Assembly: GCA_028710605.1 (NCBI GenBank)
Contig: JAQTTU010000003.1
Span: 248,001 to 312,000 of the forward strand
Source of the DNA: Sideroxydans sp.
GTDB taxonomy: Bacteria; Pseudomonadota; Gammaproteobacteria; Burkholderiales; Gallionellaceae
Direction of reading: 5' to 3'
Length of the DNA stretch: 64,000 nt
How positions within the stretch are numbered: position 1 is the stretch's first letter; each line of letters begins with the position of its first letter. Positions 5,567-59,083 of this stretch are shown piece after piece. The notes under the pieces are model-generated. The model worked only from the letters and a program-made list of their open reading frames with translations, did no database searches and was not told the origin of the DNA. Made by a program: the position numbers and the translations under genes.

Positions 5567-5608
5567 TCATGGAAAAAATGGCGGGTGTGACCCGCCCTAC
5601 CCGACCAA

Positions 5609-5681
5609 CCTCGTGCAGATGCCCGCCAATCGGCGATCTACGCGATGCGTTTGATGCGGATCGCCTATTGGCGGGCGTTGC
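5609..5681. repeat. REP-like dispersed palindromic element (full copy)
   Basis: cctcgtgcagatgcccgccaatcggcgatctacgcgatgcgtttgatgcggatcgcctattggcgggcgttg. Confidence 0.85.
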
Positions 5682-8067: not shown

Positions 8068-10243
8068 GATTTTTTAGGGAGTCTTGCTGGCGTTCGGCAC
8101 GCGGTTTATTGGCCGTCTTGTCCTTCTGCTTCCGTTTCGCCGTACCGGCGGGAATCACTGCCGATGCGGCTGGAGGGACGACGATGGCGACGGGAGCGGC
8201 CAGCGCCGCAGCGGGCGGCGGTGCGGACGCGGGCAACATCAGCGCAAGCAGCATCACGGCGGAAAATGTCCAGCCGGAATAGGCCAACCATGCGGCCTTG
8301 TGCGCGGCGAAATGATCCGCCAGCTTGCGCAGCTTTTCGCGCATGAGCGGCCAGATTCCCGTGATCGGCAACTGGTCTATACGCGCCGCATCCAGCCCGG
8401 CTTTCTCCCACGTCTCGCGTTCGGCTTGCAGCCTGTGCTGTTCGGCCAACATCGCTGCCTGTTCGGCGGCCAGCCGCTCCTGCACGGCTGCTTCAATTTG
8501 TCTGGCCAGTGCCAACCGTTGTTCTGCCGAGGTTTGCAATTCCCTTTCGCGCGCCGCATTGGCGTTTTCCTGCGCGGCCAGTTCGGCTTCCAGCGCGGTA
8601 CGGCGCTCGAATTCCAGACGCGCGGACTGTTCAGCCGCAAGGTGGGCATCCGTCTTTTCTTTGGCTTCGCGTTCGGCTTGCAAGGTGTCTTGTGCTGCCT
8701 CTAATGCGGCTTGCTCGGCAGCCCGCCGTTCCAGCACAACCGCTTCGGCCTGACGTTCCAGTTCGAGACGATGTTCCAGCAATTGTTGCCGTTCACGCTC
8801 GCGCGCCACATTGGCCTGCTCTTTTTCGGACAGCTCGGTTTCCAGTTCTGCCGAACGCAGGCTTTCGGCTTGTGCCTGACGTTCCAGCACTATTCTGGCT
8901 TCGGCTTGTTGCTGCGCTTCGCGTTCGGCTTGCAGCTTGTCCTGCTCGGCCTGCATCGCTGCCTGCTCGGCAACCTGCCGTTGCTGTGCAGCCGCTTCTG
9001 CTTGATGTGCCAATTCGAGACGTTGTTCCATCGCTTGTTGCAGTTCGCGCTCGCGCGCCGCATTGGCTTGTTCTTTCTCGGCCAACTCGGCTTGCAGCTT
9101 GTCCTGTTCGGTTTGCATCGCGGCCTGTTCGGCCTCCAGCCGTTGCTGTGCGGCCGCTTCTGCCTGGCGCGCCAGTTCGAGACGCTGTTCCATCGCTTGT
9201 TGCAGTTCGCGTTCGCGCGCCGCATTGGCTTGCTCCTTCTCGGCCAACTCGGCTTGCAGTGCGGCGGTGCGATTGCTTTCGGCAAGTGCCTGACTTTCGA
9301 GTTCGATCCGGGCTTGAGCTTGTTGCTGTGCTTCGCGTTCGGCTTGCAATTTATTCTGTTCGACCAGCAGCGCCGCCTGTTCGGCAGCTATCCGCTCCTG
9401 CACAGCCGCTTCGGCCAAGCGCGCCAACGCGAGACGCTGCTCCATCGCTTGTTGCAGTTCGCGTTCGCGCGCCGCATTGGCATTTTCCTTTTCGGCAAAT
9501 TCTGCTTCCAGCGCTGCCCTGCGTCTGCTTTCGGCAAGTGCCTGGCTTTCGAATTCGACCCGGGCTTGAGCATGTTGCTGCGCTTCGCGTTCGGCTTGCA
9601 GTTTGTCTTGCTCGGCCAGCATCGCCGCGTACTCGGCAGCCTGCCGTTGCTGTGCTGCGGCTTCGGTCTGGCGCGCCAGTTCGAGGCGTTGTGCCATCGC
9701 TTGTTCCAGTTCGCTCAGTTCCTGCGCGGCGCGTCTTTCCTGCTCCTCCAGCGCCTGCATTCCGAGCTGCGCTTTTTCTTCCATCTGTTTGCGCGTTGCC
9801 ACGATGGACTGCGCATCCTTGCCGATGGCGATTTCCAGTTCAGACAGTTTCGCCTCGGTCGATGCGCGCACTTTGGCGATATTCTGCGCGCGCAAATTTG
9901 CCGCATTCAGGTCTTCGACCATTTTGCGCAACGACTCTTCGGCTTGCGCGTTTTCCCCGATTTTTTCCGCGAGTTCTCGCCCGATGATTTTTTCTTGCGC
10001 GAGGGGATGAGCCACGGGCTGCGCGCGCTGTGCAACCGGATTGAGCGCGACATTGCCTGCTGTTTCTTTTGGTTTGGCCGGGAGAGAATCAGCCGGTTTG
10101 GCTGCAAGGGGTTCGTCCGGCTTGGCGGGGAGACTTGCCACGGAAACATCGGCAGGCTGTTTGGATATTTTGTACTTCCCGGTCAAATCCCAGGTGGTAT
10201 CAAAGTCTGTTCTGGTGCTGAAATTTCCGTGCGGTTCAGACAT
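8060..10243 (-). CDS. Large coiled-coil repeat protein with C-terminal transmembrane segment (727 aa)
   Basis: Repeated about 84-residue Ala/Glu/Gln-rich units (AEKENANAARERELQQAMEQRLALARLAEAAVQERIAAEQAALL...); LAYSGWTFSAVMLLALMLPASA near C-terminus. Confidence 0.8.
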   Translation of the reverse strand: MSEPHGNFSTRTDFDTTWDLTGKYKISKQPADVSVASLPAKPDEPLAAKPADSLPAKPKETAGNVALNPVAQRAQPVAHPLAQEKIIGRELAEKIGENAQAEESLRKMVEDLNAANLRAQNIAKVRASTEAKLSELEIAIGKDAQSIVATRKQMEEKAQLGMQALEEQERRAAQELSELEQAMAQRLELARQTEAAAQQRQAAEYAAMLAEQDKLQAEREAQQHAQARVEFESQALAESRRRAALEAEFAEKENANAARERELQQAMEQRLALARLAEAAVQERIAAEQAALLVEQNKLQAEREAQQQAQARIELESQALAESNRTAALQAELAEKEQANAARERELQQAMEQRLELARQAEAAAQQRLEAEQAAMQTEQDKLQAELAEKEQANAARERELQQAMEQRLELAHQAEAAAQQRQVAEQAAMQAEQDKLQAEREAQQQAEARIVLERQAQAESLRSAELETELSEKEQANVARERERQQLLEHRLELERQAEAVVLERRAAEQAALEAAQDTLQAEREAKEKTDAHLAAEQSARLEFERRTALEAELAAQENANAARERELQTSAEQRLALARQIEAAVQERLAAEQAAMLAEQHRLQAERETWEKAGLDAARIDQLPITGIWPLMREKLRKLADHFAAHKAAWLAYSGWTFSAVMLLALMLPASAPPPAAALAAPVAIVVPPAASAVIPAGTAKRKQKDKTANKPRAERQQDSLKNPG

Positions 10244-10295
10244 TTTCTATACCTCGTCATGGAAGTGTAATTCAAATTATCCATTAGGCTCAAAA

Positions 10296-10420
10296 CCCCC
10301 TCCAACTCCCCCTTATCAGGGGGAGAGCAGACTCGGCTCCTCCCCTGAAGTGGGGTAGGCAGGCAATCCGCGCAGCGGATGCTCGCACAAGGGGAGGTTG
10401 GGAGGGGTTGGGTCTGATGG
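10296..10420. repeat. Degenerate inverted-repeat element (CCCCCTCCAACTCCCCC...GGGGAGGTTGGGAGGGG)
   Basis: Inverted arms in intergenic region between two coiled-coil genes. Confidence 0.6.
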
Positions 10421-10461
10421 ACAATCCGGGTTGAACAAACGACCTGCCCCGAGAACACCGT

Positions 10462-12531
10462 TCAGCGCGCGGGAGGAAGGTGCAATTCCCCCGATAATTT
10501 CAAGCTATCCTTCAAATCGGGCTGCGCGGTATTCGCCTGAACCTCCGCCTGCACGGCATCATTCCCCGCAACTGCCGCAGGCGGGGTAATGGTCTTGGCG
10601 GAGTTTTTCAAATCACTGGCTTGCGCCGCCTTCACCGGTGTTGAAGAGCGCGAGGTAAACAGCATCACGCCCAAAACCACAGCGGCAACAACCCAGCCCG
10701 AGTATGCCAGCAGCGAACGGCTGCGCGCGGGCGGTTTTTCCATGCCGTGCAGCAGCGACATCGAAGACGGAAGCACCGTCAGTTCGTGGCCTTCGACATC
10801 GTAAACATCGAGCGGTGGCAGTTCGGATTCGACCAGCGAGTTATTCTTCTCGCGCGCCTCTTGTATGGCTTGCAGCTTGTCCTGCTCGGCCTGAATGGCG
10901 GCTTGTTCGGCTGTAACAAGCTCCTGCGCGGCGGTGGCAGCTTGTTGCGCCAGTGCGATGCGTTGCGCGATTTTTTGTTGCAGCTCGCGCTCATAGATGG
11001 CTTTGGCCGCTTCCTGTTCGCGCAATTGCGCCTCCAGTTCGGCTCTGCGCGCGGCTTGTTCCTGTTCGGCGAGCGCGTTGGCACTGGCCAGGGCAGCCTG
11101 CTCGGCTTGCAGCTTGTCTTGTTCGGCCTGTCTGGCTGCCTGCGCGGCAGCGGCGGCTTGTTGCGCCAGTTCAACGCGTTGCGCGATCTGTATCTGCAAT
11201 TCGCGCTCGTGCGCGGCTTTGGCCTCTTCCTGCTCCAGCAACTGCGCTTCCAGCCTCGCCCTGCGCCCGGCTTCCGCGAGCGCAGCCCGTTCCTGCTCGA
11301 CCAGCGCGTTAGCGTTGGCCAGCGCCGTTTGCTCCTCTTGCAGCCTGTCTTGCCCGGCCTGAACGGCAGCCTGCTCGGCGGCGACACGTTCCTGCGCTGC
11401 GGCAGCGGCTTGCTGCGCCAGTGCTATCCTGTGCGCGATCTGATTTTGCAATTCAAGCTCCCGCGCGGCGTTGGCGGCTTCCTGCTGGTGCAACTGCGCT
11501 TCCAGTCCGGCCCTGCGCTCAATTTCCGCGCGCGCCGCTTGTTCCCGTTCGATCAGCGCGTTGGCGCTGGCCAGCGCCTCTTGTTCGGCTTGCAGTTTTT
11601 CTTGCTCGGCCCGCATGGCGGCCTGTTCGGCGGCGACACGTTCCTGCGCGGCAGCTGCGGCTTGTTGCGCCAACTGGATACGCTGTCCGATTTGATTTTG
11701 CAGCTCGCGCTCGCGCAGGGCGTTGGCGGCTTCCTGCTCGTGCAACTGCGCTTCCAGCCATGTTCTGCGCTCGGCCTCCGCCTTGGCCGCCTGCGCGGTT
11801 TCAGCCAGCGCGCTGGCGCTGGCCTGCGCCGCGCGTTCCGCTTGCAGCTTGTCCTGTTCCGCCTGCCGTGCGGCCTGTTCGGCGGCGACACGTTCCTGCG
11901 CTGCGGTTGCGGCTTGCTGCACCAGTTCGATGCGGTGCGCGATCTGGCTTTGCAATTCGCGCTCATGCGCGGCCTTGGCCGCTTCCAGTTGATGCAACTC
12001 AATTTCCATCGCCGCCCTGCGCTCGGCTTCGGCGCGCGCGGCATCGGCCATTTCCTTGCGCTTCAACGCGGCATCTGCGGCAAGCTTTTCCTGCTCGATA
12101 GCCTGCGGCGAACTGGCCTGCAAATCCTTTTCGATTTTTTTGCGGTACATGACAATCGCCAGCGCATCCTTGCTGATGGACGCTTCGACTTCCAGCAGCT
12201 TCGCCTCCGTTGCCGCGCGCACCTTGGCAAGGTTTTGCGCGCGCAGTTGGGCCGCATTCAGTTCTTCGAGTTTTTTGTTGAGCACGACGGCAGCGCGCGC
12301 ATCCTCGCTGATGGATGCTTCCAGTTCGCGCACCCTGGCTTCCGCGCTGGCGCGAATACTTGCCATTTGCTGCGCACGCATCTGCGCCTGGCTCAGGAGT
12401 TTCGAATATTCGGCTTCCTGGACGGACTGTGGCTGCGAAACAACCGCGTTTGTTTCGGACGGCGAAGTCGCTTCTTCCCGCTGTTGCGGCAGCACCCAGG
12501 TTTTTTCAAAATTTGTGCCGCGATCTTCCAT
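10462..12531 (-). CDS. Large coiled-coil repeat protein, paralogue of the downstream gene (689 aa)
   Basis: Same 84-residue repeat (HEQEAANALRERELQNQIGQRIQLAQQAAAAAQERVAAEQAAMRAEQEKLQ...); C-terminal SLLAYSGWVVAAVVLGVMLF. Confidence 0.8.
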   Translation of the reverse strand: MEDRGTNFEKTWVLPQQREEATSPSETNAVVSQPQSVQEAEYSKLLSQAQMRAQQMASIRASAEARVRELEASISEDARAAVVLNKKLEELNAAQLRAQNLAKVRAATEAKLLEVEASISKDALAIVMYRKKIEKDLQASSPQAIEQEKLAADAALKRKEMADAARAEAERRAAMEIELHQLEAAKAAHERELQSQIAHRIELVQQAATAAQERVAAEQAARQAEQDKLQAERAAQASASALAETAQAAKAEAERRTWLEAQLHEQEAANALRERELQNQIGQRIQLAQQAAAAAQERVAAEQAAMRAEQEKLQAEQEALASANALIEREQAARAEIERRAGLEAQLHQQEAANAARELELQNQIAHRIALAQQAAAAAQERVAAEQAAVQAGQDRLQEEQTALANANALVEQERAALAEAGRRARLEAQLLEQEEAKAAHERELQIQIAQRVELAQQAAAAAQAARQAEQDKLQAEQAALASANALAEQEQAARRAELEAQLREQEAAKAIYERELQQKIAQRIALAQQAATAAQELVTAEQAAIQAEQDKLQAIQEAREKNNSLVESELPPLDVYDVEGHELTVLPSSMSLLHGMEKPPARSRSLLAYSGWVVAAVVLGVMLFTSRSSTPVKAAQASDLKNSAKTITPPAAVAGNDAVQAEVQANTAQPDLKDSLKLSGELHLPPAR

Positions 12532-13653: not shown

Positions 13654-13782
13654 TAAATTCCCCTATTCCCAATATGGCGACTCTACCAGAATCCGGCACA
13701 AACTTGGACTGATGCCCCATTCTTCTTCTGCGGTATTCCGTGCACTATTTTAAACAGGATATTGATCGCAGACCAACAAATA

Positions 13783-13840
13783 CGGGCATCTCCATCAAGC
13801 GCACGGCGTAGATCGCCGTTTGATGCGGGTTGCGGGGCAG
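13783..13840. repeat. REP-like dispersed palindromic element
   Basis: acgggcatctccatcaagcgcacggcgtagatcgccgtttgatgcggg. Confidence 0.7.
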
Positions 13841-14437: not shown

Positions 14438-14833
14438 TCAACTGCCGCTTTCAAGATCATGAAAAAATACCCAGAACGGTTTTCCCTGCAAGCGCCAGAA
14501 CTCGACGGTGGCGTTGAGAATATCGTCAAGCACGATCTCGCCGGCATCTTCGCCGCGCAGCAACAGCACGTATCCCGGCGCTTCGCACCAGGAGAGATCG
14601 CCCAGCGCGTCGGCCAGCGCATCCCAATTGTGGCCGAACCAATCCGGTGCCTTGATCGCGCGCGCCAGTTCCGCCAGCACTTCGCCTTTGCCGTGCGCCG
14701 TCGCAATATCCGCCTCGAACAAGGCAAAGTCCGCGCGCTGCACCGACTCATTCAAGGCATCCAGCGAACAGTTGAGCCAATACACGCCCGCGCCATTCGC
14801 GTCTTTCAACAGATAGCACAAGTCTTCCATCAT
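14438..14833 (-). CDS. Barstar-family RNase inhibitor
   Basis: LNCSLDALNESVQRADFALFEADIATAHGKGEVLAELARAIKAPDWFGHNWDALADALGDL. Confidence 0.85.
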   Translation of the reverse strand: MMEDLCYLLKDANGAGVYWLNCSLDALNESVQRADFALFEADIATAHGKGEVLAELARAIKAPDWFGHNWDALADALGDLSWCEAPGYVLLLRGEDAGEIVLDDILNATVEFWRLQGKPFWVFFHDLESGS

Positions 14834-15369
14834 CGTTCCTCCCTGATGCGGTAGAAACTGCGGTAATGATCGTCGCTGTAATAACACTCCGGCAGTGCGA
14901 ATGGGTCGCTGCGCAGCAGCGGGGAACCCATCGGCCTACCCCTTGCGGGTACCACGCCGCATACGATACGCCGCGCGCCGCGATTGTGCACGCCCGGTGT
15001 CTTTACCGTGTACTCGTGGTAGAGGGCGCGACACGGTGGGGCGGAGCCCTTTGGTGCGGGAGCGCCCTCCTCGCACCTCCTCCCGCAAGCGGCTGACTTC
15101 GTCAGTAACGTGTCGGAGGTGCAGCCGCGCTGTTGTTGCGGCAGGATGTGTTCGTAATTGCCGAACACCACGCCGTCGCGCGGAAAGGGGAACGGGCCGT
15201 TCTTCTTGATGAGTTGCAGCGTGTCGCGCGCTTCCGGCGGCAGGTCGGCAACAGAGATGGATGAGATGGGAGCCGCTTCATGCGCATGATGGCTGCGCGC
15301 TTGGGCAAACGGCAAGCACAGCAGCAAGCCAACCAGCAGCCACCACCGTGCTTGAGTCATGCGCCGCAT
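14830..15369 (-). CDS. Secreted barnase-type guanyl-specific ribonuclease with in-frame insertions
   Basis: YHEYTVKTPGVHNRGARRIVCG...ECYYSDDHYRSFYRIRE; signal peptide; overlaps barstar by 4 nt. Confidence 0.85.
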   Translation of the reverse strand: MRRMTQARWWLLVGLLLCLPFAQARSHHAHEAAPISSISVADLPPEARDTLQLIKKNGPFPFPRDGVVFGNYEHILPQQQRGCTSDTLLTKSAACGRRCEEGAPAPKGSAPPCRALYHEYTVKTPGVHNRGARRIVCGVVPARGRPMGSPLLRSDPFALPECYYSDDHYRSFYRIREER

Positions 15370-22356: not shown

Positions 22357-23807
22357 AGCAGCCGCAAAAATGCGTCGCCGTCATCGGCGGCGGCCCGGCG
22401 GGATTGATGGCGGCGGAAGTGTTGGCGCGCGGCGGCGCGCACGTCGAAGTGTTCGACGCGATGCCCAGCGTGGGACGCAAATTTCTGATGGCGGGCAAAG
22501 GCGGCATGAACATCACCCACGCCGAAGACTTCGATATTTTTCTCACGCGCTACGGCGCGCGCCGCGAACACATCGAACCGCTGCTGCGCGCATTCCCGCC
22601 CGACGCTTTGCGCGCATGGATTCATGACCTCGGCATCACCACCTTCGTCGGCACCTCCCACCGCGTATTCCCCGCCGACATGAAAGCCGCACCGCTGCTG
22701 CGCGCGTGGCTGCACCGCCTGCGCGAAAGCGGCGTGATATTTCATGCGCGGCATCGCTGGTGCGGATGGGATGAACAGGGAGCATTGCGCTTCGCCACGC
22801 CGCATGGCGAACTTCGTATGAACCCAGAAAATCCATTAGCCGAAACATCCCCGCCCCCTTGCAGGGGGAGGGTTAGGGAGGGGGTAGAAACGTTACCGCT
22901 CAGCATCTCTACCCCCATCCGTGCGTGTGTTGTTGGGGCTTCAGCCCCGTACAACCACGGCCTACCCCTTGCGGGTGCAACCTTCCCCCTGCAAGGGGGA
23001 AGGAGTGGGTTTGGTTCTAATGGTTTTTTTGAAATGAAAGCTGATGCAGTAGTCCTGGCACTGGGCGGCGGCAGTTGGCCTCAACTCGGTTCGGACGGCG
23101 CGTGGGTTACATTGCTGGAACAGCGCGGCATCACCATCGCGCCGTTGCGCCCGTCCAACTGCGGTTTTGAAATTGCGTGGAGCGCACACTTCCGCGAACA
23201 TTTTTCCGGCGAACCGTTGAAGTCTGTCGCCGCCACCTTCGGCGATGTACGCAAACAAGGCGAATGCCTCATCAGCGCACACGGCATCGAAGGCGGCTTG
23301 ATTTACGCACTCTCCGCCGCTCTGCGCGACGAGATCGAACGCAAAGGCCATGCAACTTTGCATCTCGACCTGCTACCGGATTGGACTATGCAAAAAGTTC
23401 AAAACGAAGTGTCGCATCCGCGCGGCGCACGCTCGCTCTCCAGCCACCTGCAAAGCCGCCTCGGCTTGAAAGGCGTGAAAGCCAACCTGCTGCGCGAAGT
23501 ATTGAGCGCGGAACAAATGCACGACACTAATTTGCTGGCGCACACCATCAAAGCCCTGCCGCTACGCCTCATCGCCCCGCGCCCGTTAAGCGAAGCGATC
23601 AGCAGCGCAGGCGGCGTAACGTTTGCAGCGCTGGATAAAAACCTGATGCTGAAAGAACTTCCCGGCGTGTTCTGCGCGGGAGAAATGCTGGATTGGGAAG
23701 CGCCCACCGGCGGCTATCTGCTCAGCGCGTGTTTCGCCAGCGGTTATGTTGCCGGAAAAGGCGCGACAGACTGGCTCAAGCACCCCTCTGGAGATGGCCG
23801 TCAATAG
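22353..23807 (+). CDS. NAD(P)/FAD-dependent oxidoreductase (BaiN/HI0933 family) with in-frame repeat insertion
   Basis: VAVIGGGPAGLMAAEVLARGGAHVEVFDAMPSVGRKFLMAGKGGMNITHAE...; TTG start overlapping upstream TGA; insertion about 22835-23030. Confidence 0.85.
   Translation: MKQPQKCVAVIGGGPAGLMAAEVLARGGAHVEVFDAMPSVGRKFLMAGKGGMNITHAEDFDIFLTRYGARREHIEPLLRAFPPDALRAWIHDLGITTFVGTSHRVFPADMKAAPLLRAWLHRLRESGVIFHARHRWCGWDEQGALRFATPHGELRMNPENPLAETSPPPCRGRVREGVETLPLSISTPIRACVVGASAPYNHGLPLAGATFPLQGGRSGFGSNGFFEMKADAVVLALGGGSWPQLGSDGAWVTLLEQRGITIAPLRPSNCGFEIAWSAHFREHFSGEPLKSVAATFGDVRKQGECLISAHGIEGGLIYALSAALRDEIERKGHATLHLDLLPDWTMQKVQNEVSHPRGARSLSSHLQSRLGLKGVKANLLREVLSAEQMHDTNLLAHTIKALPLRLIAPRPLSEAISSAGGVTFAALDKNLMLKELPGVFCAGEMLDWEAPTGGYLLSACFASGYVAGKGATDWLKHPSGDGRQ
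22835..23030. repeat. Composite palindromic repeat inside the baiN-like CDS
   Basis: Shares attagccgaaac.tcccc, cccccttgcagggggagggttagggagggggtagaaa and ccttccccctgcaagggggaagga with 1671-1815, plus nested about 60-nt insert. Confidence 0.85.
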
Positions 23808-23822
23808 GCGATCTTCAAGGCG
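23790..23822. repeat. REP-like element (half copy) overlapping the baiN-like stop codon
   Basis: gatggccgtcaataggcgatcttca; TAG stop in gtcaatagg. Confidence 0.8.
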
Positions 23823-39312: not shown

Positions 39313-39382
39313 AGCTGAAGCCCACATAGCAGCAAAAGGTAGCAGCAAAAGGGGCCTGGCTCGCATTAGTTTCCGCAACCAC

Positions 39383-39422
39383 ACCTCATGAAAACGCCCG
39401 TCAATAGGCGATCTACAGGCTA
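39383..39422. repeat. REP-like dispersed element (half copy)
   Basis: cctcatgaaaacgcccgtcaataggcgatctacaggc. Confidence 0.8.
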
Positions 39423-40012: not shown

Positions 40013-40200
40013 GATTTACGTCCGGCGAACTGTTCGCCTTTATTGTAGCCCTTACCGCCCGCCACTCAAAACCTCAATCGCTGGCATGCGAATCAATTGG
40101 CTTACATTGACCATTAACCGCTTCCCCTCCTGTATCGGCTTTAGCATTCGCCAGCAAGCTGGCTCCTACAGAACAAAAAATGTTCGCATTAGTTTCACAA

Positions 40201-40260
40201 CCTCGTGAAGATGCCCGTCAATAGGCGATCCGCAAGAATCGCTTGATGCAGATGCCCGTG
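40201..40260. repeat. REP-like dispersed palindromic element
   Basis: cctcgtgaagatgcccgtcaataggcgatccgcaagaatcgcttgatgcagatgcccgtg. Confidence 0.8.
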
Positions 40261-40336
40261 TTTGCTGACTCAGCCACAGGCGCATCCGCAATCAGCAGCA
40301 GTCCATCACAGCATAGCTGTTAGACTCAATCCACTT

Positions 40337-41246: not shown

Positions 41247-41285
41247 TGCTTGCTCTCCTTGCACTGCCGCACCACCGAACATAAC

Positions 41286-41340
41286 GGGAACGCCCGTCAA
41301 TAGGCGATCCACATCGTGCACTTGATGCAGATGCCCGTAT
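41286..41340. repeat. REP-like dispersed palindromic element
   Basis: cgcccgtcaataggcgatccacatcgtgcacttgatgcagatgcccgtat. Confidence 0.8.
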
Positions 41341-41985
41341 TTACTGGCTTGCGGCGCGACGGTGTTTGATGAATTCGTTGATCGCGGGGATGAATGAGAT
41401 GACCACGATGACGAGGATCATCAGGGTGAGGTTGTCTTTGATGATGGGAATGTTGCCGAAGAAGAATCCGGCCAGGGTGAGGCCGCCTATCCACGCCACA
41501 CTGCCCAGCGCGCTGAACATCACGAACAGGCGGTAGCTCATGGTGGCGATGCCCGCGACGAACGGGGCGAAGGTGCGGATGATGGGCAGAAAGCGAGCGA
41601 AGATGATGGTCTTGCCGCCGTGCTTTTCGTAGAACAGGTGGGTCTTTTCCAGATGTTCGTGTTTGATGAAGCGCTGCTTGGGGTGGTTGAGTATGCGCAG
41701 GCCGAGCAGGCGACCGACCCAGTAGTTGGTGTTGTCGCCCGCGAACGCGGCGAGCATCAGCACGGGCATGAGAATTTGCGGTTCCAGCGAACCCATGCCG
41801 CACAGCGCGCCCGCCACGAACAGCAGCGAATCGCCGGGCAGGAACGGCGCGACCACCAGGCCGGTTTCGGCGAAGATGATGGCGAACAGGATGGCGTAAA
41901 CCCACACGCCGTAATCCTGCACCAGCGCCAGCAGGTGGGTGTCCAGATGCAGGACGATGTCGATGAAGGCGGTGAGGATTTCCAT
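41341..41985 (-). CDS. DedA family protein
   Basis: FAIIFAETGLVVAPFLPGDSLLFVAGALCG...FARFLPIIRTFAPFVAGI. Confidence 0.92.
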   Translation of the reverse strand: MEILTAFIDIVLHLDTHLLALVQDYGVWVYAILFAIIFAETGLVVAPFLPGDSLLFVAGALCGMGSLEPQILMPVLMLAAFAGDNTNYWVGRLLGLRILNHPKQRFIKHEHLEKTHLFYEKHGGKTIIFARFLPIIRTFAPFVAGIATMSYRLFVMFSALGSVAWIGGLTLAGFFFGNIPIIKDNLTLMILVIVVISFIPAINEFIKHRRAASQ

Positions 41986-53314: not shown

Positions 53315-53394
53315 AACTGCGCCTGAACGAACTGTCGCAAGGCGGCGGAATTGGCGTAACGCATTTAGCCAGTTTGCCCGCAAGGCAGTAACGG

Positions 53395-53452
53395 CGGGCA
53401 TCTCCATCAAGCGCATGCTGTAGATCGCCTATTGACGGGCATCTTCACGAGG
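53395..53452. repeat. REP-like dispersed palindromic element
   Basis: gcgggcatctccatcaagcgcatgctgtagatcgcctattgacgggcatcttcacgagg. Confidence 0.85.
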
Positions 53453-58823: not shown

Positions 58824-59023
58824 CCCTTACGGACTCAAACAATCAACCACCGCTCCCGCCGCCATAGTCTTGCGCTATTTTTTTCGAGAAAAATTATGCG
58901 GCATGCGTAGCGTATATCTACGGAGGCAAAAGCTCAATTAAACCGGCAGAGGCCTCGCCCCAATGAGCGAACTGCGGGAAGCCCCCCATGTTCAAACATG
59001 AGCTTCGCTGCAAGCCCACAAGC

Positions 59024-59083
59024 ACGGGCATCACCATCAAGCGCATGCTGTAGATCGCCTATTGGCGGGCTTCTTCGTGAGGT
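59024..59083. repeat. REP-like dispersed palindromic element
   Basis: acgggcatcaccatcaagcgcatgctgtagatcgcctattggcgggcttcttcgtgagg. Confidence 0.85.

What the first reader, a model, noticed from the sequence alone, without database searches (positions are those of the whole stretch)
14890..15123. Barnase-type RNase probably also interrupted by in-frame repeat-like segments, one shared with the BaiN insert
Expected ...QRG-YYHEYTVKTPG... is broken by CTSDTLLTKSAACGRRCEEGAPAPKGSAPPCRAL (about 15022-15123, 102 nt), and a second extension (VVPARGRPMGSPLLRSDPFALP) precedes ECYYSDDHY. The second contains CGGCCTACCCCTTGCGGGT, also present in the nested element at about 22960-22980. Catalytic Glu (HEY), Arg (ARRIV) and His (DDHY) are retained. 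With MutS and BaiN this makes three genes in 64 kb with repeat-associated in-frame expansions.
Basis: partly seen in the sequence, partly recalled or inferred. Interest (0 to 1): 0.75.

Follow-up and report, generated by a model that had tools for sequence, protein, structure and literature searches.

The report
Jumping double hairpin inside working genes
A small mobile-type DNA element that folds into two hairpins has landed, without shifting the reading frame, inside a ribonuclease gene and many housekeeping genes of iron-oxidising bacteria (Gallionellaceae), adding about 33 extra amino acids each time, and its hairpin stems change from copy to copy while staying paired.

Summary
ORF 14830-15369(-) is an RNase Sa/barnase-type ribonuclease next to a barstar gene, with two in-frame insertions. 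Insert 1 (99 nt, 33 aa, 15025-15123) is one copy of a dispersed element: about 16 copies in this genome, present in 69 of 121 sampled genomes of the same family (Gallionellaceae, judged from GTDB record titles), nearly absent from the rest of the class. Insert 2 (57 nt, 19 aa, 14890-14946) belongs to a second repeat family, shared in part with the BaiN insert.

I found no description of the insert-1 element. It is two consecutive hairpins with conserved loops. The 7-bp stems differ in most copies but stay about 97% paired, far above shuffles. It is flanked by a duplicated GC. At 17 gene positions compared with uninserted relatives the gain is exactly 96 or 99 nt, in conserved, often single-copy genes (PEP carboxylase, GlnE, MurG, AceE and others). 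Of 53 copies judged in-gene from flanks alone, 51 lack an in-frame stop, so the insert is most likely translated as a floppy loop.

It works like Rickettsia palindromic elements and intragenic REP dimers, but is a different family with hypervariable, covarying stems. The mobilising enzyme is unknown.

The parts
14830..15369 (-). RNase Sa/barnase-type secreted guanyl-specific ribonuclease gene (179 aa) carrying both inserts
   Evidence: PF00545 1.8e-16; PDB RNase Sa 7e-19; orthologues found in the genus; model resembles RNase Sa/Sa2, TM-score 0.75-0.85 by target length
15025..15123 (-). Insert 1 as seen in the protein: 33 aa / 99 nt between QQQRG and LYHEYTV
   Evidence: alignment with 28 congeneric orthologues; pLDDT below 50 over 74-102 of the modelled protein
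15022..15122 (+). Double-hairpin element, whole (stem arms included)
   Evidence: covariance model R1: 118.7 bits, E 2.3e-22, the only copy in the window
15022..15028 (+). Left stem arm GAGGGCG, pairs with CGCCCTC of the middle
   Evidence: 7/7 complementary
15029..15062 (+). Alpha unit (first hairpin loop region), CGACACGG...TGCGGGAG
   Evidence: genome-wide alignment
15063..15079 (+). Middle, 17 nt: 7 nt pairing with the left arm, 3-nt spacer, 7 nt pairing with the right arm
15080..15115 (+). Beta' unit (second hairpin loop region), CTCCCGCA...TAACGTGTCG, the most conserved part
15116..15122 (+). Right stem arm GAGGTGC, pairs with GCACCTC of the middle
   Evidence: 7/7 complementary
14890..14946 (-). 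Insert 2: 19 aa / 57 nt between VVP and ECYY, a copy of a second dispersed repeat family (B)
   Evidence: 8 near-complete copies plus about 20 copies of a 20-nt part in this genome; family in 24 of 34 congeners; absent from 23 of 29 orthologues
14932..14950 (+). 19-mer CGGCCTACCCCTTGCGGGT shared with the BaiN insert at 22958-22976
14438..14833 (-). Barstar-like inhibitor gene (start taken at the ATG of MMEDLCYLL)
   Evidence: PF01337 9.8e-19

Best explanation
The ribonuclease gene has been hit by two small repeat elements that keep the reading frame. Insert 1 is a copy of a non-autonomous mobile-type element of Gallionellaceae of the form GC-N5-alpha-rc(N5)-GC-nn(n)-GC-rc(M5)-beta'-M5-GC. Folded as a single strand it makes two hairpins. 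The outermost pairs of the 7-bp stems include the duplicated GC, so one insertion adds 96 or 99 nt, always whole codons. Inside genes it is translated into a flexible loop of about 32-33 residues at sites that tolerate it. Shown by computation: dispersal, GC duplication, fixed lengths, in-frame placement, stem covariation. Inferred: mobility as such, translation of the insert, continued activity of the ribonuclease, and the view that the folded (hairpin) form is what the unknown mobilising enzyme recognises. The covariation is best explained by a need for the hairpins combined with repair or template switching that copies one stem arm from the other.
For: Multi-copy in this genome (14 good copies); in the first survey 12 of 14 lie in a gene-like ORF in frame, with two genes hit twice in tandem. 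At 17 distinct gene positions, each compared with several orthologues, nearly every uninserted orthologue differs by exactly 99 or 96 nt at a GC or GC-like site. Inserted PEP carboxylase and GlnE genes are the only copies found in this genome. Stems: 13.62/14 paired in 63 unique sites versus 8.80 in shuffles, maximum 9.65. In 49 aligned copies 97.6% of cells are paired and 210 cells changed on both sides versus 50 in shuffles (0/500); slid controls pair only 28-49%. Pairing falls off after position 7. Compensatory stem changes occur even between same-site insertions in different genomes: 15 double-sided versus 11 one-sided differences. Of 53 sites called in-gene from flanks alone, 51 have no stop in frame, and the frame with the conserved TAA is never used. 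Distribution: 69 of 121 genomes of the family, 3 weak others in the class. AlphaFold pLDDT is below 50 over most of both inserts with the ribonuclease strands kept.
Against: No transposase could be tied to the element: Y1 transposase numbers do not follow copy number (Spearman 0.27, p 0.12) and no autonomous copy was seen. No transcript, protein or activity data exist. The frame test relies on a simple codon score, and two of 53 sites carry stops. Many copies come from metagenome-assembled genomes, although several single-contig genomes carry it (G004, G023, G028). Coding calls for individual relatives' genes rest on ORFs and recognised motifs, not on a profile search of each protein.
Confidence: 0.9

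Rival explanations
1. The extra segments are ordinary lineage-specific loop expansions of the ribonuclease with no relation to mobile DNA.
For: Both lie in predicted loops and keep the reading frame.
Against: Both are dispersed repeats in the genome and genus. Insert 1 is absent from 28 congeneric orthologues and the same element sits in at least 16 unrelated genes with exact 96/99-nt gains.
Confidence: 0.02
2. The insert is present in the gene but removed or skipped before the protein is made (RNA excision, ribosome hopping as with the byps of yeast mitochondria, or protein splicing), so frame would not matter.
For: Strong hairpins exactly at the insert boundaries and duplicated GC at both ends.
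Against: Gains are multiples of three. The frame with a conserved stop is never used and frame use is strongly uneven (19/17/14/2/1/0). Rfam gives no match at the element.
Confidence: 0.05
3. The ribonuclease gene is a decaying pseudogene that accumulates repeats.
For: Two inserts in one 179-codon gene; the new loop directly precedes the catalytic HEY strand.
Against: The frame is intact, the catalytic motifs and the residues invariant in 28 aligned sequences are kept, and the adjacent barstar is intact. A distant ribonuclease with the same insert is also intact (L320), and inserts also sit in housekeeping genes found as the only copy.
Confidence: 0.08
4. The element is a REP-type dimer spread by a Y1 (RAYT/IS200-IS605) transposase.
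For: Paired imperfect palindromes; intragenic REP dimers are known (PMC3733652); Y1 genes occur in 21 of 34 congeners.
Against: No GTAG or CGTC tag at the unit ends, a 2-nt GC duplication, an element-rich genome without a detected Y1 gene (G029, 64% complete), no significant correlation. The Y1 genes here may serve the separate TGTAGGAGCGAGC-type REPs.
Confidence: 0.2

Closest known systems
Rickettsia palindromic elements (RPE) and Wolbachia counterparts
   Same: Short palindromic mobile elements retained in frame inside conserved protein genes and read as extra peptide (review PMC10969869; PMC3733652)
   Different: Unrelated host lineage (free-living Gallionellaceae); two hairpins with hypervariable covarying stems, GC duplication, fixed 96/99-nt gain. 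No such stem behaviour is mentioned in the passages I read; the original RPE paper was not held.
Intragenic REP dimers (GTAG/CGTC-tagged REPs)
   Same: Pairs of imperfect palindromes, dispersed, sometimes inside genes encoding 20-30 extra residues (PMC3733652)
   Different: Unit ends are CGACAC / GCGGGAG, not GTAG or CGTC; most REPs are intergenic, whereas 12 of 14 copies in the first survey of this genome lie in ORFs
Bacterial MITEs
   Same: Short, non-autonomous, inverted termini (CGACACG...TGCGGGAG against its inverse), short target duplication
   Different: No parental insertion sequence found; middle and ends vary together
Double-hairpin elements and repetitive hairpin-forming elements of fungal and sponge mitochondria
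   Same: Two hairpins in tandem, dispersed, sometimes in genes, not removed from transcripts (PMC2800124)
   Different: Mitochondrial; reported without flanking duplications for Allomyces; stems conserved rather than hypervariable in the sponge elements
RNase Sa / barnase family (PF00545)
   Same: Fold, catalytic motifs, adjacent barstar
   Different: Two repeat-derived loops

Membership tests
RNase Sa / PF00545 ribonuclease | Profile match and catalytic Glu, Arg, His motifs | tested here: met
   PF00545 60.9 bits; HEY, ARRIV, DDHY retained
RNase Sa / PF00545 ribonuclease | Ribonuclease activity and barstar inhibition | not testable with these tools
   needs expression and assay
Rickettsia palindromic elements | Palindromic repeat inserted in frame in conserved genes | tested here: met
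Rickettsia palindromic elements | Sequence homology to RPE families | not tested
   RPE sequences were not compared and Rickettsia was not searched; outside the family only three weak hits were seen in 242 other genomes of the class
GTAG/CGTC REP families | GTAG or CGTC tag at one end of a 20-40 bp palindrome | tested here: not met
   unit ends CGACAC and GCGGGAG in the 49-copy alignment
GTAG/CGTC REP families | Association with a Y1 (RAYT) transposase | tested here: inconclusive
   Y1 genes in 21 of 34 congeners, Spearman 0.27, p 0.12
MITE | Terminal inverted repeats and short target duplication | tested here: met
   CGACACG...TGCGGGAG inverted in beta'; GC on both sides in most empty-site comparisons
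MITE | Derived from an identifiable insertion sequence | tested here: inconclusive
Mitochondrial translational bypass elements (byps) | Insert not translated, so length and frame are free (own knowledge) | tested here: not met
   gains 96 or 99 nt and biased stop-free frames; direct proof needs proteomics
Double-hairpin elements | Two adjacent hairpins | tested here: met
   97.6% of pairs formed in 49 copies, strong covariation

The most novel reading that the evidence does not exclude
The stems are rewritten at or after each insertion. The folded element base-pairs through its variable arms with the target around a GC, and one arm is then copied from the other (or from the target), so every new copy carries a self-complementary imprint. 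That would make it a protein-coding mobile element whose arms act as a rewritable, partly target-guided recognition sequence. In support, arms resemble the outer flanks in the direct-repeat register more than chance even without tandem copies (left arm 2.08 vs 1.58 of 5, 0 of 5000 shuffles), and the same nucleotide site in two very divergent ribonucleases carries the insert.
Probability: 0.2. Interest if true: 0.9.

Novelty: new variant of a known kind. Interest (0 to 1): 0.7.

Why it matters
Protein-coding palindromes have been known mainly from Rickettsia and from scattered REP dimers. Here a separate family does the same in free-living iron oxidisers, in many housekeeping genes, with empty sites in close relatives that make gain, tolerance and loss directly measurable. 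The paired but hypervariable stems are an unusual evolutionary signal and give a testable handle on how such elements move. It also offers dozens of natural 33-residue loop insertions to study protein tolerance.

Tried and rejected
Rfam: no family at the element. Y1 transposase counts: no significant link. Plasmid and phage collections: no match; four viral-contig records matched, not followed. Looking at partial copies for a transposase-bearing parent: only other modules and truncations were seen, plus two half elements at the same gene sites as full ones (G004 HemW +42 nt, CysN +45 nt). Bridge-RNA (IS110) reading considered: both halves of the middle pair with the same strand as plain hairpins, unlike the two-strand guides of bridge RNAs (own knowledge), so dropped. 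A first coding survey that required an open frame is biased for counting stops, so a flank-only test was made. NCBIfam gave no hit for either protein. Weak class-level hits in G198, G187 and G213 (E 1e-4 to 5e-3) were printed and are not convincing copies of the element. My first parse of some right boundaries was off by a few nt and was corrected.

Full report
WHAT WAS CLAIMED AND WHAT IS THERE. The finding says that a barnase-type RNase gene is interrupted by two in-frame repeat-like segments, one of which shares a 19-mer with an insert in BaiN. The ORF is at 14830-15369 on the minus strand. It is a ribonuclease of the RNase Sa/barnase family (PF00545) next to a barstar gene (PF01337). Its closest solved relative, RNase Sa, aligns in three blocks with gaps exactly at the two segments. 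A search of 34 genomes of the genus with the protein gave matches in 32 (some of these matches are the element itself in other genes). Of 29 aligned ribonuclease proteins, only the one in the window has the 33-aa segment 1, and six have segment 2. Three of those six carry a longer 37-aa form of segment 2. By DNA the inserts are 15025-15123 (99 nt) and 14890-14946 (57 nt).

THE INSERTS ARE DISPERSED REPEATS. Segment 1 has 14 good copies in this genome, and 16 rows (15 distinct places, one matched on both strands) are found with a covariance model under strict filters. Segment 2 has eight near-complete copies plus about 20 copies of a 20-nt part, and its family is in 24 of 34 congeners. The 19-mer match to the BaiN insert is exact. 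The segment-1 element occurs only once in the window, so MutS and BaiN are not hit by it.

ANATOMY OF THE ELEMENT IN INSERT 1. Aligning copies gives an alpha unit of 33-36 nt, a 16-17 nt middle that varies from copy to copy, and a beta' unit of 33-36 nt. The two units have related but not identical interiors and share inverted ends (CGACACG...TGCGGGAG). The first seven and last seven nucleotides of the middle are the reverse complement of the seven nucleotides flanking the element on each side, so the whole folds into two hairpins (fold). Over 63 unique sites 13.62 of 14 positions pair, against 8.80 when flanks and middles are exchanged between copies (largest of 5000 shuffles 9.65). Pairing is about 0.9-1.0 at positions 1-7 and falls towards background beyond. 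A larger set of 122 sites shows the same on the left side and a weaker right side (0.76-0.98), in part because a group of copies was parsed with a shifted right boundary. On a gap-free alignment of 49 copies, 97.6% of cells of the double-hairpin structure pair; changes on both sides number 210 against 50 in shuffles, with slid controls at 28-49% paired. The outermost pairs of each stem are usually GC, present at both ends.

INSERTION SITES. Comparing inserted genes with uninserted orthologues gives the same picture for PEP carboxylase, PepD, GlnE, MsbA, BioD, RsgA, MurG, AceE, RecG, GreB, HemW, two sites in YgfZ, BioF, RlmN, CysN and MurC. The gene gains exactly 99 or 96 nt at a GC or GC-like dinucleotide that is then found on both sides. 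The fixed length is the sum of 5 + 84/87 + 5 plus the 2-nt duplication, and it is a multiple of three (cores of 86 or 85 nt also occur, with the total unchanged at the sites compared). The gene names rest on my reading of the translated motifs and on orthologue searches, not on a profile scan of every protein. Two orthologues in G004 carry half elements (alpha hairpin only) at sites where others have the full one (HemW and CysN). Tandem double copies occur in two genes of this genome.

IS IT TRANSLATED? In a test that calls a site genic only from coding statistics of the flanks, 53 of 122 unique sites are inside genes, and 51 of these have no stop in the element in that frame. The one frame that contains a conserved TAA is never used, and frame use is uneven. 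That fits translation with selection, and not removal or skipping. PEP carboxylase and GlnE with inserts are the only copies found in this genome. The AlphaFold model of the ribonuclease has pLDDT below 50 over much of both inserts (segments 66-72, 74-102 and 138-155) and still matches RNase Sa structures. Overall confidence is modest (mean 66). These results support tolerated, flexible loops; activity itself is not shown.

STEM EVOLUTION. Same-site insertions in different genomes differ at stem positions 15 times on both sides with pairing kept and 11 times on one side (the pairs are not all proven to descend from one insertion). Change after insertion is therefore often compensatory. Two mechanisms could do this: selection for the hairpin, or copying of one arm from the other by template switching (known from quasi-palindrome correction; own knowledge). 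The arms also resemble the sequence just outside the opposite end in the direct-repeat register more than chance, even with tandem copies removed. This leaves room for partial target matching or target capture. The window ribonuclease and a distant ribonuclease from Gallionellales RIFCSPLOWO2_02_FULL_57_47 (L320) carry the insert at the same nucleotide; host parts are only 50% identical, the insert 28/33. Repeated insertion, transfer, or descent with many losses cannot be separated here.

DISTRIBUTION AND AGENT. A GTDB pattern scan finds the beta unit almost only in Gallionella, Sideroxydans, Ferrigenium and related metagenome-assembled genomes. With the covariance model, 69 of 121 family members across 13 of 15 genera are positive, against three weak positives among 242 other genomes of the class. 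It is absent from the plasmid and phage collections. No transposase could be linked.

COMPARISON WITH WHAT IS KNOWN. In-frame palindromic inserts are known as Rickettsia palindromic elements and as intragenic REP dimers in several species (PMC10969869; PMC3733652). Neither Gallionella nor Sideroxydans is mentioned in PMC3733652, and the paper searches that I ran returned no description of this element. The present element works like those, but it fails the REP tag criterion and was not compared by sequence with RPE families. I therefore call it a new family and a new variant of a known kind. The new features are the covarying hypervariable stems and the strict 96/99-nt gain.

Noticed in passing
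22821-23040: In-frame expansion of the BaiN-like ORF is a nest of other repeats (a 100-nt repeat also at 1656-1755, a GTTGTTGGGGCTTCAGCCCCGTACAAC hairpin and the 19-mer of family B); it is not a copy of the double-hairpin element.
   Followed up: partly
L160, L165, L167, L161, L172 (ribonuclease orthologues): Insert 2 is nearly identical at DNA level between species (1 difference in 57 nt between window and L161) although the flanking host codons differ often; a longer form has 54 extra nt. Suggests repeated insertion or homogenisation at one site.
   Followed up: partly
L409 and L431 (G004): Half elements (alpha hairpin only, +42 and +45 nt) at the same sites in HemW and CysN where other genomes carry the full element.
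   Followed up: partly
L005 (G000:C3:137034-137234) and L009 (G000:C22:281840-282025): Two tandem copies of the element inside one gene (quinone oxidoreductase-like; aminoglycoside phosphotransferase-like), in frame.
   Followed up: yes
L188: PEP carboxylase of G003 has the same-site insert with a compensated left stem (GCGGTTG/CAACCGC instead of GCGGCTG/CAGCCGC) and a second hairpin whose loop sequence is replaced.
   Followed up: partly
L008, L119, L124-L126, L129, L133-L136, L141, L142, L144, L148: An apparently intergenic subfamily with longer conserved ends (TTACATATGCGCCAT...TGCGGTCATATGC) and a 16-nt middle.
   Followed up: no
L020 (G000:C9:12111-12165): A family-B copy sits inside the loop of a TGTAGGAGCGAGCTTGCTCGCGA REP, beside a Y1 transposase gene (G000:C9:12272).
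   Followed up: no
8394-12277: Long repeats of 252 nt (84 codons) in several copies, probably a repetitive protein gene.
   Followed up: no
1609-1652, 2673-2716, 5601-5644, 13759-13840, 23776-23819, 39376-39419, 40193-40270, 41272-41349, 53371-53452, 59001-59082: Another dispersed repeat with GATGCCCGTCAATAGGCGATCT core, about ten copies in 64 kb.
   Followed up: no
L480-L483: Four IMG/VR contigs carry the beta unit; possible phage or prophage carriage or misbinned host DNA.
   Followed up: no
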